From the NCBI RefSeq assembly GCF_012184425.1, contig NZ_VTOW01000004.1, positions 186,001 through 250,000 on the forward strand: a stretch of DNA of 64,000 bases. Direction: 5' to 3'. The translations under genes and the position numbers were made by a program. The first letter of the stretch is position 1. Each line of letters opens with the position of its first letter. Below the pieces are notes generated by a model, which ran no database searches, was not told the DNA's origin, and was given only the letters and a program-made list of their open reading frames with translations. Source of the stretch: Candidatus Manganitrophus noduliformans. Lineage in GTDB: Bacteria; Nitrospirota; Nitrospiria; SBBL01; Manganitrophaceae. Below, piece after piece: positions 29,308-46,256 of this stretch.

Positions 29308-29550
29308 ATGAAGATCGAATTTCCTGAAGAGCCGGTGTGGGAGCCGCTTCAGGCCGTGGTCGGCTCCAGATGCCGTGAATTCATGTTTATGGGACAGATC
29401 GCTTTAGAGTCGGGGACGATTTTCTCGTACAAACATATCTGGACGCGGCGCTACCTCGATTTGGACCGGGAGGGCCGGGCTTACCGGTATACAGGAGAGG
29501 TGTACGTATCCACCGACCTGGAGGAGGCGATCAGGTATGTCTTCGGATGA
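29308..29550 (+). CDS. Small hypothetical protein
   Basis: An 80-residue protein starting 11 nt after nrdJ behind GAGGAGG. All-beta look with many aromatic residues (KHIWTRRYLDLDREGRAYRY). Family unknown. Confidence 0.55.
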   Translation: MKIEFPEEPVWEPLQAVVGSRCREFMFMGQIALESGTIFSYKHIWTRRYLDLDREGRAYRYTGEVYVSTDLEEAIRYVFG

Positions 29551-29569
29551 AGAAGAGGGAGGCGAGAGG

Positions 29570-30559
29570 ATGAACTGGCGCATCGACGTCCAGCATTTTG
29601 CCTCCCTCTTCCGGGGACATCCGGATGCCTTCGGCCTGATGCAGGACGGGAAGATCGCTGCCGTGCGCTGCCCGGTCTCTCTGCTCCACTACCGGCATCA
29701 TCTGGAGGGGAAAATCCGGCTCGGGATCTATCCGCTTCTTTCGAATGGGCGGACTTTATTTCTGGCCCTCGATTTCGATGGGCCCGGCTCCCGGGAGTCC
29801 GCGTGGCGGGTCCTCCATTTCGCACGGCATTTTCATCTCCCTTTCGTTTGGGAGGTGAGCAAATCCGGAGACGCCCATCTCTGGCTCTTCTTTTCCGGGC
29901 CGGTCTCATCCCGCGATGCCCGGCGGGTCGCCCGGATGCTGCTGGAAGAGTCGGAGGCCCGGGCGGAGATCTTCCCAAAGCAGGACGAAGTGCCAGAGGG
30001 CGGGCTGGGAAACTTCATCTGGCTCCCCCTTTCCGGCGAGTCGGTGGGGAAAGGGAGGACCCTCTTTATCGATCCCGAGAGTCTGGATCCTTATCCCGAT
30101 CAGAACAGTTTCCTTTCAGGAGTTCGGAAGGTCTCCGAAGAGGATCTCGCCCGGCTGGTGGATATGAATGGCCTGAACGCTACGGATCACAGAGCCGATC
30201 GCGAATGTGGCCAGGCCAGGACCTATCCCGGCCATCTCCTCCCTTGTGCTCAAAAGATGCTGGAGGGGGTTTCGGAGGGGTGCCGCGACGTGGTTGCCTT
30301 TCGCCTCGCGATTCACCTCAAATCGCATGGCTATACCTGGGAAAGGGCAAAGGAACTTCTTCAGGACTGGAACGCGACACGAAACAGGCCGCCGTTATCC
30401 TCGGGAGAGGTCGCGGCAAAGGTTCAGTCGGCCTATCTTCGTGGCTACAGCGGCTATGGGTGTGAGGACCCGCTGATCGTCCCGTTCTGTGAGGAGAGCT
30501 GCCCGGTAAAACAGAAAACGCTTGCGGTTCAGTTCGTAGCGGAGGAGGGTTGTCGATGA
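29570..30559 (+). CDS. Archaeo-eukaryotic-type primase
   Basis: A 329-residue protein starting at the ATG with GAGAGG ahead. Catalytic AEP motifs are visible: LFLALDFDG (D68, D70), SGDAHLWLFF and the FPKQDEVPEGGLGNFIWLP block that ends the fold, matching the AEP family found in TOTE conflict proteins and primase-helicases of mobile elements. Residues 230-300 resemble a PriCT-type primase C-terminal helical domain. Six or more cysteines near the end (GCEDPLIVPFCEESCPVK) could bind a cluster. Probably primes replication of the element after transfer. Confidence 0.8.
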   Translation: MNWRIDVQHFASLFRGHPDAFGLMQDGKIAAVRCPVSLLHYRHHLEGKIRLGIYPLLSNGRTLFLALDFDGPGSRESAWRVLHFARHFHLPFVWEVSKSGDAHLWLFFSGPVSSRDARRVARMLLEESEARAEIFPKQDEVPEGGLGNFIWLPLSGESVGKGRTLFIDPESLDPYPDQNSFLSGVRKVSEEDLARLVDMNGLNATDHRADRECGQARTYPGHLLPCAQKMLEGVSEGCRDVVAFRLAIHLKSHGYTWERAKELLQDWNATRNRPPLSSGEVAAKVQSAYLRGYSGYGCEDPLIVPFCEESCPVKQKTLAVQFVAEEGCR

Positions 30560-39563: not shown

Positions 39564-39707
39564 GAGGCCGTTTTAGGCGTTCCTCCCGACGGCGCCAGGG
39601 TGAAGCTCCGCATCGACCCCGGCCGCTCCGACTACGAAGTGACGGCGGAAGTGGTCCGGAGAGGGAATGGGAAGGACGGGAAGGGTGTCGGGGTCTGTTT
39701 TGTGTGA
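39564..39707 (+). pseudogene. PilZ-domain C-terminal remnant
   Basis: The frame ends in EVTAEVVRRGNGKDGKGVGV then CFV and a stop, the last two strands of a PilZ (cyclic di-GMP-binding) domain. The N-terminal RxxxR motif is missing. It is coupled by GTGA to the ketoacyl-synthase remnant. Confidence 0.5.
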
Positions 39708-40170
39708 GAGAGGGGCCAGATACGGATTGCGGGTATCGCCGCGAGTTTTCCGAGTCGAGTTGTAACCAACGAAGAAGTGTTGGCCTTGATTACCCGGCGC
39801 AGCCAAGGAACCTTTCAGGGCGATTTCAGGCGGACCGCCAGACGGATTCTGCACCTTCTCAACTATTCCGGGATCGAATGTCGCCGATGGCTCGCTCCGG
39901 GCGAGTCGCCCATCCGATTGCTCTCCGAGGCGGTGGCAAGGGCCGAGGCGGGCTGTGGGCCTTCGGAGATCGATCTGCTCGTCTACGTCGGCGGCGGGTT
40001 CCGGGATCCCGGCAATGCCTAGATGATCGCCCATGCGCTCGGTCGTGCTTCGACGTCCGGGACGCCTGCATGAGATGGTCTCGCGCCCTGCAACTTGTCT
40101 ATAACCTTTTCAGGGGCGGCCGGGCGTACCGGCAAGCTCTCATCGTGAACGCCGAGTGCAATATGTTCAT
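39704..40170 (+). pseudogene. Ketoacyl-ACP synthase III-like pseudogene
   Basis: Starting at GTG, one base of shift leads into RIAGIAASFPSRVVTNEEVLALI, a FabH/KAS III N-terminus, followed by GIECRRWLAPGESP and CGPSEIDLLVYVG. The frame then meets a stop at GNA-stop-MIAHALG, where the family has a Tyr, and further frameshifts split DACM...ALQLVYNLFRGG and the following strand. The catalytic Cys region (DACMRW) survives only in a shifted frame. The C-terminal half is gone. Confidence 0.65.
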
Positions 40171-40244
40171 TCATTTTGAGGTCATAACCTACAGGCCCAA
40201 GACAATTCTGGAAGAACCAATTTAAGTTCAAGGAGGTAACTGCA

Positions 40245-42875
40245 ATGCAAAAGGCTATTGTCTGTAGCATGGACGAAGAATTCTTGAGATGTGGGACAGA
40301 GTTTTCGGATAGGTTTGTCTCTTCCTATTACTTCGTCCCCTTATCCATAACCTTTGATGATAGCGAGACCCCTATTTTACCGGAATATAAGAAAAGGCGG
40401 TTCCCAATGATGCACCTACGGGACCCACTTTGGTTCGACAGGGTAAAGGATATCGCTGAAAAACATGCGATTCTACTGCCGGACTTGCTGAAAAAAAATG
40501 AAATAACACTACCGCCAATTGGTCCCGGCCCTGACGCCGGCCTTGGTATTGCTAACCGGCCTGAAATTCGCTACGTCGCGAAAGATAAAATTAAAGACCA
40601 TGTTAAAGATGTTAAAGATTTCGCTGTCCTGCTGAAAAGCAGGGTCTCTGAAAGCGATCGAGGGATGGTCGATCTAATCGAAAGAAAATTGACAGAACTC
40701 AATGCTGCAGTCGAAGCGGCCCCTGAGATGTATAGCACACCAACAGAGAGCGTAAGCATGGCGATCAGTGCCGCAGTGGCTGGTACAATGACACCCTCCG
40801 CCGGTTCGAACCAGGCTCAACAACTTGATTTTTTCCTCAATGCAATTAAATCAGATGTGGGCTATGTTTTTTTTGACAGGACACGTATTAGACCGAAAGG
40901 TTTTACAGTAGGCGAGCATGTCTATACCCTAAGCTTGGCACCCGGAGAAGAAGTCGTCTTGGAACAAAAGACCTTCTCGAAGAGGTCGACGACTTTTGAA
41001 GAACAAACCGAGCAAGAAAAACAATTTGATCTTGAATTATCAAGTACATTAACAAACGAAATCCAAGAAGGCTTTGAACGACAAACAAGTCTAACCGATG
41101 CGAGAGGATTCCAAGTAGGCGGGTCGGTCGGCGCGCAAGTAGAGGTGGTGAAAATAGATGCTAACGCTTCTCACTCTCGCAATATCACTGAAGCCGATAG
41201 CCAGACAAAGTCACGTTCGATCAAACAGAGTCAAACTGCAAGTTCGAAAACCGCTTCGAAATACCGGACGCAACACAAAGTAACATTTAAACTCTCAACA
41301 GAGGAAGGCTTTGAATCCACCGCTAAGAGAGTGATAAGGAACCCAAACAAATATACCGCAGTTGATCTGCATTACTTCAAAATCCTGCGAGTGCTTGAGG
41401 TGTCTCAGGAACGATACGGGGTTAGGCTTTGTTGGGCGCCGTACATCCAAGACCCTGCCTTTGATTTTATAAAAAGGATTAGAGATGGAAGAAGCAAAAT
41501 CATACAGGATTCACAAAACAATATTCAGCTCCCACCGGAGCCGACACAGCCTGCGGGAAGAACCGTACCAAATCTAACTGAGTTTGGATCAGTGCATGTT
41601 GATAAATGGGATTGGTGGGATGGTAGCACCCCTGACTCTCCTGCCGATCGTAGCTACAAAATTAGGATAGACGTGCCGACAAACTACAAGTGGAATAGTG
41701 ATATCAATACTGTTAAGAACAGCATAAGATTGGACACCGCCATGCAAAGAACCGCCTTCGCTGAGCCGGACGGCGATCCCTATCTTAGCGGCAATGAAGT
41801 AATAATTCCGGTTAAAGTAACCGTCAGTAGCAGGCCGCTGTGGGCATATTTGTCGCTGAACTTGATGGCGGTAGCGTTAGCATTTGTGAATCCCCCGGCA
41901 GGGGCAGTAGCAGTCGCAGCAATGTGGGCAGCTCACTTAGTATCTAATCAGGTGGCAGAACAGGATAAAAAGGCCATGAATGAGTTTTCGCCTGTTTATG
42001 TTCAAGCTCAGGTCCGGTTTGAACCGGATCCGGCCACCCATCCTGACTTGCAGGCATATAAAGCTGACTTAGATGAATGGAAAATAGAGCACGATAAGTG
42101 GAAAGGAGATAAAGACACTCTACTTAAAGACGCACATGAAAAGGGAGTAGAAGCTGCTAATGATTGGGAACAAGAAACTCTGAAACAGCACAACCCCATT
42201 GCAGAGATGATGAATATCATCATTAACAAGTACTTCACACCCAGCGTACGCGACGAGGGCTGGGAAATCGACATGTGGCAGAAACTGTTTGACTGGGATG
42301 CAGCTTCATATGTGCTTTATCCAAGCTGGTGGTCGGGTCCTACGCTCCGCGATTCCACTAAGGAACCAGCAGATTTCTTTAATGCCAGTTGGGCGAGATT
42401 ATATCTGCCTATCAAAATGGGTAAAATAGGGGGGACAAGCGTAGAGCGTATTGCCTTAAGGTGGATATTCGATAAGGTTACAAATGGTAACCTTATCGAC
42501 CCAAATAAGGAAAAGACATTCACGAATATTGAAACGGAGCTCGCTAATTACCGTAAGAGTTATTTCGGGGATGATCAGGAAACTAATATTGTATCCAGTA
42601 CAGGGGAAGAGTGCCCTGAGCTCAAAGAGAAATATACCTGTCTCGCCCATTGGACAGAGTTGATGCCAACAGATGGGACGCACATTGAAGTGATTCAAAG
42701 CATGACCAGCGCTGCGGATCAATTCAGCAAGAATGAGGTTGATGATGCCAACGCCCTCCGAAATGCCATGATCGAAAGCGAAAGGCAAGATGTTGAACTG
42801 AAGAAGAAAGCCCTAACTCAAGTAACGCAGCCAGCAAATGTAGAGGTGAGGATCAATACCGACAAAGAGGACTAA
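40245..42875 (+). CDS. Large hypothetical protein of an AT-rich cassette
   Basis: An 876-residue protein without signal peptide, behind AAGGAGG. Residues 195-400 hold a distinctive block: GYVFFDRTRIRPKGFTVGE, YTLSLAPGEEVVLEQKTFSK, then alternating charged beta-like repeats (EEQTEQEKQFDLELSS) and YFKILRVLEVSQERYGVRL. A hydrophobic stretch (about 527-565) could be one or two membrane helices; after it come long charged helices. I know no family. The DNA is clearly richer in A+T and uses different codons from its neighbours, so it was recently transferred. It overlaps the next gene by TAATG. Confidence 0.7.
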   Translation: MQKAIVCSMDEEFLRCGTEFSDRFVSSYYFVPLSITFDDSETPILPEYKKRRFPMMHLRDPLWFDRVKDIAEKHAILLPDLLKKNEITLPPIGPGPDAGLGIANRPEIRYVAKDKIKDHVKDVKDFAVLLKSRVSESDRGMVDLIERKLTELNAAVEAAPEMYSTPTESVSMAISAAVAGTMTPSAGSNQAQQLDFFLNAIKSDVGYVFFDRTRIRPKGFTVGEHVYTLSLAPGEEVVLEQKTFSKRSTTFEEQTEQEKQFDLELSSTLTNEIQEGFERQTSLTDARGFQVGGSVGAQVEVVKIDANASHSRNITEADSQTKSRSIKQSQTASSKTASKYRTQHKVTFKLSTEEGFESTAKRVIRNPNKYTAVDLHYFKILRVLEVSQERYGVRLCWAPYIQDPAFDFIKRIRDGRSKIIQDSQNNIQLPPEPTQPAGRTVPNLTEFGSVHVDKWDWWDGSTPDSPADRSYKIRIDVPTNYKWNSDINTVKNSIRLDTAMQRTAFAEPDGDPYLSGNEVIIPVKVTVSSRPLWAYLSLNLMAVALAFVNPPAGAVAVAAMWAAHLVSNQVAEQDKKAMNEFSPVYVQAQVRFEPDPATHPDLQAYKADLDEWKIEHDKWKGDKDTLLKDAHEKGVEAANDWEQETLKQHNPIAEMMNIIINKYFTPSVRDEGWEIDMWQKLFDWDAASYVLYPSWWSGPTLRDSTKEPADFFNASWARLYLPIKMGKIGGTSVERIALRWIFDKVTNGNLIDPNKEKTFTNIETELANYRKSYFGDDQETNIVSSTGEECPELKEKYTCLAHWTELMPTDGTHIEVIQSMTSAADQFSKNEVDDANALRNAMIESERQDVELKKKALTQVTQPANVEVRINTDKED

Positions 42876-44395
42876 TGATGTCAGCAGTTAGTTTGGCTCC
42901 GCTACAAAAGAAGAAACCATACCTACCGCCGCCACCGTACTATTATCCTACCCCAACCAAATTCAAGGCTACGCTGACGAAATTAAAAGAGAACTTGAGG
43001 TCCAAGCTGCTCGCTCGTTTTCCACCTCCGGAAAAGAAATCCCGACCGTATCACGATACCGAGAGAACCCTGCTAACTTCCATGGACAACATGGAAGCAA
43101 TGATTACAACGTACCTGGAGGTTAAGCCTGTGGAGCCGGTGCTGGTAGGAATGACGATTTTCCCTACATTGTCTGGTTCGGTAGGCCGGCGGAAGCCCAC
43201 ATTTAAGAGCAGCGCGGTGGGAGATTTCTACGTTCAAGTCGCCCCCCTGGTCCAGAGAGTTGAGACTGACCTTGCCCCAGAAGCCTTTCCGGTCGATGAT
43301 TGGCAACAATTCTTGCCGAAATTTGAAGAGCATATGGCTTGGGTTAAAATCGTCCGATTGTGCATCGTCATAACGATGGTAAATGCCTTAGACTACAAAA
43401 GTATATGGGGAAAAAAAGATGGAGATGCTGGCTGGTCTCTTTCTGAGAGGGCAAAGGACTGTGCTGCTTTTATTTTGAAGTTAGAGGCTTATAATGAGAT
43501 AAGTATTCACCTTTTGAACGAAGATACCTTCTTGGAAGATTTGGGTTTGAGGAACAGTGTTCAAACTTACATACAGGCTATTGAGAGCCTGATTCGTGAA
43601 GTAAATATTTGGCAAAACTGGTGCAAGCTTAAAGTCTGTTCCGTTGGGGAACTTGGCGAAACTTATCCCTGGGAATTTAAACCTATTCCGCGAGATCTAT
43701 TTTCGGCGGGCGATCTAGTTTCTGCACCTTTTCCAGTTGAGATGTATGCACGGGATGGCGCGATAATCAAAGCAGCGAAAGTGAAAAAGTTGTGGGACAA
43801 CCTTATTGAGAGGGGGGTAGTATCAAACGACTTTCAATTCTGTATCACTGCAGGGACGCTTAAACATGGAGGAGCCCATCCGCCACACATTGAACACAGG
43901 AATGGTTCAATGTTCGACTTTGACCTGAAAAATCTTCCAAATTTGGTGGGAAGAGAGGGGCCTGCAACTCTCGTCGTTACCATGGGACAGCACGTTGAAG
44001 AGGAGCCAATAGGAGTTGTGTTAGAACTTGAATACTCTCTGGGAGATCGCCTCTTTGACTGGGATTTTCCTCCGCACAAAAGGTATGAGGAGTTTTATAA
44101 CGTAGCTAAGAAATTCACCAAGTGTATTTATCTGACCTTCCCAACTTCTGTCCTTTATGCCTCTGAGAAAATAACAGTACAGGCTAAGAAGGAATTATTA
44201 ATACGCATAGACGAATTACTTGCAACTACGATAGATAAAGCAAACATTGCAGATCTCAGTGCCATTAGAGAAGCTATTAAAAAGATCAACCCAACACCGT
44301 GGAAGGGAAAGCCAAAGGAAAAACAGGACAAAATGAGATTACAACATAGGCACCATTGGCATGTTAATTATTCTCCAGACACGTTCGGTGAGTAA
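42875..44395 (+). CDS. MepA-like (peptidase M74/LAS) murein endopeptidase-domain protein
   Basis: A 506-residue protein. The C-terminal half has GGAHPPHIEHRNGSMFDFDL (residues 332-351) and HHWHVNYS (493-500). The first matches the penicillin-insensitive murein endopeptidase pattern GGxxPPHxxHxxGxDxD, with zinc ligands H341 and D348 spaced H-x6-D; the last gives the HxH pair H494/H496. This is the LAS metallopeptidase arrangement. The first 330 residues are unassigned and helical, after a Pro/Tyr-rich start. No signal peptide. If the fold is right it cuts peptidoglycan cross-links, so it must reach a cell wall by another route. Coupled to the 876-residue gene. Confidence 0.6.
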   Translation: MMSAVSLAPLQKKKPYLPPPPYYYPTPTKFKATLTKLKENLRSKLLARFPPPEKKSRPYHDTERTLLTSMDNMEAMITTYLEVKPVEPVLVGMTIFPTLSGSVGRRKPTFKSSAVGDFYVQVAPLVQRVETDLAPEAFPVDDWQQFLPKFEEHMAWVKIVRLCIVITMVNALDYKSIWGKKDGDAGWSLSERAKDCAAFILKLEAYNEISIHLLNEDTFLEDLGLRNSVQTYIQAIESLIREVNIWQNWCKLKVCSVGELGETYPWEFKPIPRDLFSAGDLVSAPFPVEMYARDGAIIKAAKVKKLWDNLIERGVVSNDFQFCITAGTLKHGGAHPPHIEHRNGSMFDFDLKNLPNLVGREGPATLVVTMGQHVEEEPIGVVLELEYSLGDRLFDWDFPPHKRYEEFYNVAKKFTKCIYLTFPTSVLYASEKITVQAKKELLIRIDELLATTIDKANIADLSAIREAIKKINPTPWKGKPKEKQDKMRLQHRHHWHVNYSPDTFGE

Positions 44396-44421
44396 CGCAG
44401 TATTCGAGGCTTGTACAGAAC

Positions 44422-45309
44422 ATGGATATTGCCGCAGCTAAAAAAAAAGAAGGGCTATGGAAGGAACTGTTGGAAGATCCGATAGTTTTTGGAAATTCGA
44501 ATTTTTTCTCGCTCCTCAAGACCAGAGGAATTCCAATGGCGGTGGGAAAGGATAGCGAAGACCCTGAAGCCAATTGGGCGGTTGTAGAGGCATCGAAAGT
44601 TGATCTAAAAATCATTGAATACACGGTCGCAGGCAAAACTATTCATGATGCGGTCAAGGACTTTTCGGATTCTTCGATAATCATCAATGGTGCCATGTTC
44701 AACCCCAAAGGAATTGATCCTCCAAAGACAATTGGCTTACTCTATGATCAAGGGCAGCGTCTTTCGACCTCACTTGATCCCCAAGCAACGCCAGGGACTC
44801 AGGAAGCCAAATTACTGAATGTGGTCCGCAAGAGATTCACCTTCGGGCAAACTTCTCCAGGTAGAGGCATACGTTCATACAAATACGGTCAAAACGCTAC
44901 GCTACCATTTGTCGAACAAATCAAAACACACGTCACTGGTCTTTTTTCATTCATAAGATTCGGGGTAAAGCAAACAGTGAACGATGACAAAGACCTTAAT
45001 GTATTCTTCGATATGCAGCAGGATTGGAGGGGTATAGGAATAATTGGAGTAGCTCCAGAATCTGGCTATCTTTTGTTTTATGCTCGGGAAGGTGGAACAT
45101 ACGGCAGACATACGGATGACATTCAAGAAGCGCTGGTTAATATGGGTGTAAGAGATGCGTTCTTGGTAGATGGTGGGAGCTCTGTGGCGCTTGCAGTGAA
45201 TGGTGCTGTTGTGGTCGCTTCGGACAGGCATGAGGATCCTAACCTGATTGCTACAGTTACAAACTATTTAGTATTTTATCCAAAGCAAAAGGCAGTGCAT
45301 GCCAAGTGA
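44422..45309 (+). CDS. Phosphodiester glycosidase (NAGPA-domain) protein
   Basis: A 295-residue protein whose last 200 residues match PF09992: SSIIINGAMFNPKG, the GxGIRSYKYGQN region, LLFYAREGG, then DAFLVDGGSSVALAVNG, the conserved active-site strand. The family removes GlcNAc-1-phosphate caps in animals and is found in bacterial and phage envelope-active proteins. No signal peptide. It starts 26 nt after the M74-like gene and shares its AT-rich base use, so it completes a three-gene envelope-directed cassette. No terminator seen after it. Confidence 0.75.
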   Translation: MDIAAAKKKEGLWKELLEDPIVFGNSNFFSLLKTRGIPMAVGKDSEDPEANWAVVEASKVDLKIIEYTVAGKTIHDAVKDFSDSSIIINGAMFNPKGIDPPKTIGLLYDQGQRLSTSLDPQATPGTQEAKLLNVVRKRFTFGQTSPGRGIRSYKYGQNATLPFVEQIKTHVTGLFSFIRFGVKQTVNDDKDLNVFFDMQQDWRGIGIIGVAPESGYLLFYAREGGTYGRHTDDIQEALVNMGVRDAFLVDGGSSVALAVNGAVVVASDRHEDPNLIATVTNYLVFYPKQKAVHAK

Positions 45310-45346
45310 ACTGGACTGCACTCCTCCGATGACAGGGAGAAACCTG

Positions 45347-45571
45347 ATGGCCAAGCCCAAAACCAAGTCCCAAATCGTTGAACATCTCTCCGCCAAGACG
45401 GACCTCTCCAAAAGGACTGTCACCCAGTTCACCATTCACAAATCGCATGGGAGTGAATTTGAGGCTGTCATTATCCCCGTGGCGACACAACACTTTAAAA
45501 AATCCAAAGACACCCTAAAATGCCTCACCAACTTTTTCTATCTCTGTTCTTGGGTGACACCAAGGAGTTGA
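45347..45571 (+). pseudogene. Chimeric fragment: HU N-terminus joined to RecD-like helicase piece
   Basis: From an ATG at 45347 the frame reads MAKPKTKSQIVEHLSAKTD then LSKRTVTQF, the start of an HU-type DNA-binding protein, and continues directly as TIHKSHGSEFEAVIIPVAT, motif of RecD/TraA-type helicases. Two unrelated gene ends fused in frame are the product of past recombination, not a working gene. Confidence 0.55.
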
Positions 45572-45951: not shown

Positions 45952-45996
45952 TTGCCAAGGCGAGGGTCGCGGGTTCAAATCCCGTTTCCCGCTCCA
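45952..45996 (+). other. 3' portion of tRNA-Gly(GCC), probable att site
   Basis: TTGCCAA (anticodon loop with GCC), the T-arm GCGGGTTCAAATCCCGT and TTTCCCGCTCCA with the CCA end match the second half of a glycine tRNA. No 5' half (GCGGGAA...) precedes it, so it is not a gene. A partial tRNA left by site-specific integration marks one end of an integrated island. Confidence 0.7.
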
Positions 45997-46256
45997 AATT
46001 TTAATCAATTTTAAGTAGAAGCGATTGATTCCTGCCGATGTTACCCGTGACCCTCTGTGGGTTCCGCGACGAATACAATAAGCGAAGCTTCCCCTCGGCA
46101 CGCTCCCTATCATTTGGGAGAGCCGATCCGGTTTCCTGCTTCAACACAATCCCGCCATTCCCTGAATCATTCGCCTCCCTCTCCGTTGTAAGCGCTTTCA
46201 CGGACCGCCCTTCCATGTCGGTGTTAATCTAATTACATCCGATACGGAGGGCTGTC

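What the first reader, a model, noticed from the sequence alone, without database searches (positions are those of the whole stretch)
40245..45309. AT-rich three-gene cassette: 876-aa unknown, M74-type peptidase, phosphodiester glycosidase
The three genes are coupled, point the same way, share a base composition unlike everything around them and lie beside the att site. The second has the zinc-ligand pattern of MepA endopeptidases (H341, D348, H494/H496), the third a NAGPA domain; both usually act on cell-envelope polymers, but none of the three has a signal peptide. The first has a repeating LAPGEE-type block I cannot assign. A self-contained envelope-attacking system delivered by an unusual route (lysis, contractile device, or the host's own secretion) is the best candidate here for an undescribed system.
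Basis: partly seen in the sequence, partly recalled or inferred. Interest (0 to 1): 0.75.

Follow-up and report, generated by a model that had tools for sequence, protein, structure and literature searches.

The report
Carrier protein with swappable enzyme genes
The three genes are one example of an apparently undescribed family of mobile gene sets found in widely separated bacteria, in which one large conserved protein is almost always followed by a different enzyme gene, a pattern typical of interchangeable weapon systems, although its target and delivery route are not known.

Summary
The cassette is real: three intact, coupled, AT-rich genes at the end of a ~113-kb element inserted in tRNA-Gly. 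The first gene (g1, 876 aa) belongs to a family absent from Pfam, NCBIfam, PHROGs and PADLOC, with patchy relatives in nine bacterial phyla. In 43 of 44 testable loci g1 is followed by a same-strand gene. Those 43 neighbours fall into 24 unrelated sequence families, including phospholipase D, Tlde1/YkuD-type transpeptidase, glycosidase-like, peptidase, nuclease-like and CdiA_C-like proteins. A few g1s carry the enzyme as a C-terminal fusion, payload class switches repeatedly on the g1 tree, and signal peptides are essentially absent. In the window the slot holds g2 (LAS-type zinc motif, no Pfam M74 match) and g3 (marginal NAGPA). I read it as a two-component polymorphic effector system: g1 carries, the next gene acts. 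Coupling and swapping are shown; export, target and any translocation role of g1 are inferred.

The parts
40230..40236 (+). Shine-Dalgarno-like AAGGAGG before g1
   Evidence: read directly from the sequence
40245..42875 (+). g1, 876-aa conserved carrier-like protein
   Evidence: intact ORF; no Pfam/NCBIfam/PHROGs/PADLOC family; homologues
40842..41489 (+). g1 central domain (about residues 200-415): long strands with a ~100-residue Ser/Thr-rich insert; the part that aligns across the whole family
   Evidence: alignments; secondary structure of low-confidence models
40935..40949 (+). LAPGE motif of g1 (residues 231-235), conserved in the family
42875..44395 (+). g2, 506-aa payload candidate: N-terminal region of unknown function plus C-terminal LAS-type (M15/M74-like) zinc-peptidase motif
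   Evidence: ORF; motif; no family or PDB sequence hit
43895..43918 (+). g2 H341-x2-G-x3-D348, putative zinc ligands
44354..44362 (+). g2 H494-x-H496, putative catalytic histidine and zinc ligand
44422..45309 (+). g3, 295-aa second payload candidate with a phosphodiester glycosidase (NAGPA) domain; DGGS motif at residue 250
   Evidence: Pfam PF09992 25.6 bits; weak PDB similarity to a NAGPA, E about 1; DGG motif
45952..45997 (+). right-hand att copy: 46-bp tRNA-Gly(gcc) 3'-end repeat bounding the ~113-kb integrated element

Best explanation
A mobile two-component polymorphic effector system. g1 is the constant component: a large, soluble, beta-rich protein without signal peptide that binds, packages or carries the product of the gene(s) directly downstream, and probably docks on or inserts into a target envelope. 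The downstream gene is the variable payload enzyme, exchanged by recombination at the 3' end of g1. In this copy the payloads are g2, a LAS-type zinc peptidase expected to cut cell-wall peptides, and g3, a phosphodiester glycosidase expected to cut sugar-phosphodiester bonds of envelope polymers. Shown: the family, the adjacency, the payload diversity and swapping, the occasional C-terminal fusions, the lack of signal peptides, and carriage on an integrated element. Inferred: physical g1-payload interaction, release from the producer (lysis or an unknown route), use against other cells, and any membrane-active role of the Ser/Thr-rich insert.
For: 43 of 44 g1 loci with enough sequence have a co-directional gene starting -69 to +376 bp from the g1 stop. 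The 43 downstream proteins form 24 blastp families. Pfam-supported: PLDc_2 (L074, L075), Tlde1_dom/YkuD (L070, weak but double), metallophosphoesterase (L058), trypsin (L065). Weak: CdiA_C with PT-TG pre-toxin (L064), DUF4347 (L050), M91 (L028). Motif only: NEP...E glycosidase-like barrels, W/YEIKP nuclease-like, alpha/beta hydrolase, His-Cys proteins. An AvrRpt2-type C70 peptidase is fused to one g1 (56 bits), with hydrolase-like and HExxH tails on two others; neprosin and subtilase genes adjoin two g1s. Payload class needs 16 changes for 10 multi-member classes (minimum 9) on the g1 tree. A payload family at 55% identity is shared by an Aulosira plasmid and a Streptomyces. Of 47 g1s one borderline, and of 45 downstream proteins one clear and one borderline, have a signal-like N terminus. 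Patchy distribution: 18/396 Nitrospirota, 3/397 of the Bradyrhizobium order, 6/297 of an actinobacterial class. Tlde1 is a T6SS antibacterial effector (PMC9638812); swapped toxin domains define polymorphic toxins (PMC3482391).
Against: No export route is shown. No immunity gene was noticed next to nuclease-like or transpeptidase-like payloads, unlike classical antibacterial polymorphic toxins. Payload families share no N-terminal docking domain, so how g1 would recognise them is unexplained. The model of window g1 is poor (pLDDT 55), that of a relative moderate (72), and neither has a convincing whole-fold match. The beta-hairpin alternation in the insert was not significant (p = 0.16; single-sequence test negative). 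Most payload assignments rest on motifs or weak hits.
Confidence: 0.52

Rival explanations
1. Intracellular conflict (abortive-infection-like) system: g1 is a cytoplasmic sensor or scaffold that switches on an adjacent effector enzyme when a phage or plasmid is detected.
For: No signal peptides; effector classes such as caspase/CHAT-like His-Cys proteins, trypsin, PLD, nuclease-like and alpha/beta hydrolase overlap with those of bacterial suicide systems (own knowledge); patchy, mobile distribution; a restriction-modification locus near the Aulosira copy.
Against: No PADLOC hit for g1 or most payloads (only a weak DrmC-type PLD match). Payloads with glycan or peptidoglycan chemistry (Tlde1/YkuD, glycosidase-like barrels, NAGPA, LAS-type motif) have extracytoplasmic substrates. 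No ATPase or nucleotide-sensing domain was found in g1.
Confidence: 0.2
2. Cargo of a contractile injection device or of the element's own conjugation machinery: g1 is a loading adaptor for an injectisome, phage-tail-like particle or T4SS encoded elsewhere.
For: A sheath gene exists in the same genome (C1:481759). A TraG-like gene lies on the same element. A C-terminal module of some g1s matches a domain of a phage tail tube protein (VIA Z 11.2, 75 residues at 1.9 A).
Against: Sheath genes are as common in Nitrospirota without g1 (8/15) as with it (9/17). g1 occurs in Gram-positive and Gram-negative hosts, so no single Gram-negative secretion system can serve all. No device genes were recognised among the neighbours inspected.
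Confidence: 0.14
3. Non-toxic extracellular degradation complex: g1 is a scaffold for hydrolases used in nutrient scavenging or surface remodelling.
For: Many partners are hydrolases. A jelly-roll-like domain of a relative's g1 (residues 420-537) aligns with BcsB and convertase P-domains (Z 7-8.6), and GspG-type domains occur in 11/31 g1s.
Against: Scavenging enzymes normally carry signal peptides, absent here. CdiA_C/PT-TG-like, nuclease-like, Tlde1-like and C70 partners are effector types. Jelly-roll matches at this Z are common and not diagnostic.
Confidence: 0.1

Closest known systems
Polymorphic toxin systems (Zhang et al. 2012, PMC3482391)
   Same: constant large component combined with highly variable enzymatic modules, PT-TG/CdiA_C-like and peptidase partners, swapping at the 3' end, patchy distribution
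   Different: payload is usually a separate downstream gene rather than a C-terminal domain; no recognised trafficking domain or signal; no immunity gene noticed; g1 domain absent from Pfam 2025 and NCBIfam 2026
Binary (AB-type) toxins with separate B carrier and A enzyme genes (own knowledge; review PMC4179152)
   Same: works-like analogy: two adjacent genes, a constant component of about 870-900 aa and an enzyme of about 400-500 aa
   Different: no detectable sequence similarity to the known B-component family (no Pfam hit at E<=1); enzymes of at least 24 families with no common docking domain; fold not established
Extracellular contractile injection system effectors
   Same: diverse enzyme payloads in environmental bacteria of many phyla
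   Different: no device genes recognised next to g1 in the loci inspected; no association with sheath genes in Nitrospirota

Membership tests
Polymorphic toxin system | one conserved component combined with many unrelated effector domains | tested here: met
   43 downstream proteins in 24 families, 16 payload changes on the g1 tree
Polymorphic toxin system | toxin domain fused C-terminally to the trafficking protein | tested here: inconclusive
   seen in a few members (C70 fusion L036; enzyme-like tails); most, including the window, keep the enzyme on its own gene
Polymorphic toxin system | recognised trafficking domain or secretion signal | tested here: not met
   no clear signal-like N terminus in 47 g1s, one borderline; no Pfam trafficking domain
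Polymorphic toxin system | adjacent immunity gene | tested here: inconclusive
   none obvious downstream of nuclease-like or transpeptidase-like payloads, not searched systematically
Binary toxin B component | sequence of the known B-component family | tested here: not met
   no Pfam hit at E<=1; PDB sequence search empty
Binary toxin B component | oligomeric beta-barrel pore fold | tested here: inconclusive
   models of pLDDT 55 and 72 without a whole-fold match
Peptidase M74 (MepA), for g2 | Pfam PF03411 profile match | tested here: not met
   no match at E<=10 in the own genome, none in the Pfam scan
LAS-type zinc peptidase (M15/M74-like), for g2 | HxxGxxxD plus HxH motif | tested here: met
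   H341, D348, H494/H496; 0.25% of shuffles
LAS-type zinc peptidase (M15/M74-like), for g2 | LAS fold with assembled zinc site | not tested
NAGPA phosphodiester glycosidase, for g3 | PF09992 match above gathering score | tested here: met
   25.6 bits against 25; marginal, profile positions 94-168 only
eCIS/T6SS effector cluster | linkage to contractile-device genes | tested here: inconclusive
   no genome-level association with sheath genes in Nitrospirota; adjacency not searched systematically
Known anti-phage defence system | PADLOC model match | tested here: not met
   no hit for g1, g2, g3

The most novel reading that the evidence does not exclude
g1 founds a previously undescribed, device-independent two-component delivery family: a soluble carrier, working in Gram-positive and Gram-negative producers without a signal peptide, that accepts dozens of unrelated enzymes encoded in the next gene and moves them across another cell's envelope.
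Probability: 0.3. Interest if true: 0.92.

Novelty: new variant of a known kind. Interest (0 to 1): 0.72.

Why it matters
If right, it adds a widespread two-gene polymorphic effector family that has gone unseen because its constant protein has no profile in the common libraries and no signal peptide. Every g1 then points to an uncharacterised enzyme next door: 24 families in 43 loci, most without a Pfam assignment. It also poses a testable question: how one carrier could serve unrelated enzymes that share no docking domain. The copy here lies on an integrated element of what is probably the manganese-oxidising Candidatus Manganitrophus.

Tried and rejected
Family libraries for g1, g2, g3 and PDB sequence searches: nothing beyond marginal NAGPA. 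Viral-contig, phage and plasmid searches for g1, g2, g3: only three distant plasmid hits to g1, so no sign of a phage gene family in those collections. AlphaFold of window g1: too weak; Foldseek matches to pentameric ligand-gated channels rejected (rmsd about 50 A). Model of relative L069: a Cry1Ac top hit rejected (rmsd 48 A, probability 0.10); viral tail-protein hits rejected (most rmsd about 30-50 A). Amphipathic beta-hairpin tests of the insert: not significant. Contractile-sheath co-occurrence: no association. Occupancy of the att site in the congener genome G183: too divergent to tell. Promoter and terminator scan: no more than chance. Literature: no paper found describing the family in the held PMC library; most subscription journals and preprints were not covered.

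Full report
What is there. The three ORFs are intact, coupled and compositionally distinct. They end 0.65 kb inside the right end of an element of about 113 kb: a 46-bp repeat of the tRNA-Gly(gcc) 3' end is present at 45952-45997 and again at C4:118934-118979 inside the intact tRNA. Next to the intact copy lie a tyrosine recombinase (Pfam Phage_integrase, 133 bits) and a small helix-turn-helix protein (by eye). A TraG-like protein and neighbouring ORFs that look like other conjugation genes make it ICE-like. The genome is 5.17 Mb. One relative in the window's phylum lies on a contig of the same length as a Nitrospira contig found by name (L022 and L048), which places the phylum as Nitrospirota. 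The sizes of the two congeners here (5.17 and 4.2 Mb) match those reported for Candidatus Manganitrophus strains (5.2 and 4.3 Mb, PMC9040806). The genus name is therefore an inference.

g1 is a family. Window g1 has no library match. A genome search found matches in 17 further genomes among 396 of the phylum, nearly all to the central domain at 24-29% identity. A single collection scan with an alignment of five central domains found 35 loci, in Nitrospira, Bradyrhizobium, Lysobacteraceae, Streptomyces, Nocardia, Paenibacillus, Ktedonobacter, Myxococcus, Polyangium, Desulfobacterales, Gemmatimonadetes and others; plasmid records add Aulosira, Nonomuraea and Paraburkholderia. By name that is nine phyla. 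The closest relative is in Bradyrhizobium iriomotense: 51% identity in the central domain, 34% over most of the length, sister on the tree with full support. Distribution is patchy even within orders. Invariant residues include parts of the LAPGE motif and of a Tyr-Gly-x-Arg motif. Towards the C terminus the family has an exchangeable slot: 11 of 31 relatives match a GspG-type pseudopilin model; others carry a small beta domain whose model matches a domain of a phage tail tube protein (Z 11.2, rmsd 1.9 A over 75 residues). Window g1 matches neither by sequence.

The next gene is the variable part. After trimming the overlap with g1, the 43 downstream proteins fall into 24 families by blastp at E<0.001. 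Supported by Pfam: phospholipase D, Tlde1/YkuD L,D-transpeptidase (below curated cut-offs, but two related families agree and the HGC motif is present), metallophosphoesterase, trypsin. Weak hits: CdiA_C with PT-TG, DUF4347, M91. By motif only: glycosidase-like barrels with NEP and late GEF motifs, 'EIKP' nuclease-like proteins, alpha/beta hydrolases, a HExxH protein, and proteins with a His...Cys pair reminiscent of CHAT/caspase-like folds. Three long g1s carry enzyme-like C-terminal extensions, one an unambiguous AvrRpt2-type C70 peptidase. Neprosin and subtilase genes stand upstream in two loci. Payload class and g1 phylogeny are partly uncoupled: 16 changes for ten classes, minimum nine (quick tree with some long branches). 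Payload families are shared between distant hosts, for example Aulosira and Streptomyces at 55% identity.

In the window the slot holds two genes. g2 has the LAS-type pattern (0.25% of shuffles) but no homologue anywhere searched and no M74 profile match. g3 has a marginal NAGPA match. The Bradyrhizobium relative also has two downstream ORFs, the second with a nuclease-like 'VESKS' motif (motif reading only).

Mechanism. Shown: conserved component plus variable enzyme, frequent swapping, occasional fusion, almost no signal peptides, mobility. Inferred: that g1 binds or carries the enzyme, and that the pair acts on other cells. Several payload classes have extracytoplasmic substrates (peptidoglycan, glycans, phosphodiester polymers) yet no secretion signal, which points to delivery by g1 itself, by lysis or by an unidentified route. 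Occurrence in Gram-positive and Gram-negative hosts argues against any one Gram-negative secretion system, and sheath genes show no association. The central domain is predicted, at low confidence, as long strands with a Ser/Thr-rich insert containing helices and a short hairpin. This looks compatible with a membrane-inserting element, but the amphipathicity tests were not significant and no fold match supports it, so I give a pore or translocation role about 0.3.

Observation confirmed except for the 'repeating' block.

Limits. Payload calls are mostly computational and weak. Loci were collected through one conserved pattern and may be biased to one subfamily. The literature search covered open-access PMC only.

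Noticed in passing
window 1-45997 and C4:118934-186000 (L077, L079-L082): A ~113-kb tRNA-Gly-integrated, ICE-like element with integrase, small HTH protein, a TraG-like gene, UvrD helicase, ribonucleotide reductase and helicase genes.
   Followed up: partly
window 39704-40225: Upstream of g1 the frames read like a broken 3-oxoacyl-ACP-synthase(FabH)-like gene (by eye), suggesting the cassette sits beside gene remnants.
   Followed up: no
window 45299-45571: Downstream of g3 a short ORF seems to join an HU-like N terminus (by eye) to a UvrD_C_2-like fragment, another remnant at the element's edge.
   Followed up: no
window 29537-30559: Primase-like protein with an AEP-TOTE domain (139.8 bits) and PriCT_1.
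   Followed up: no
L036 1826-12093; genomes G999 and G1075: Tandem g1 genes (in L036 two adjacent large g1s, one with a fused C70 peptidase and one with a hydrolase-like tail).
   Followed up: partly
L035 6263-11045: A g1 relative with an N-terminal helix-hairpin-helix (HHH_3, 58.6 bits) domain and a HExxH-type C-terminal tail.
   Followed up: no
genes downstream of g1 in L045, L053, L056, L067, L043, L063, L071: The EIKP/EVxT nuclease-like payloads carry a hydrophobic, possibly membrane-spanning segment after the nuclease-like part (read by eye).
   Followed up: no
G000:C1:481759-482076: A contractile-sheath-like gene elsewhere in the same genome; not linked to this cassette.
   Followed up: no
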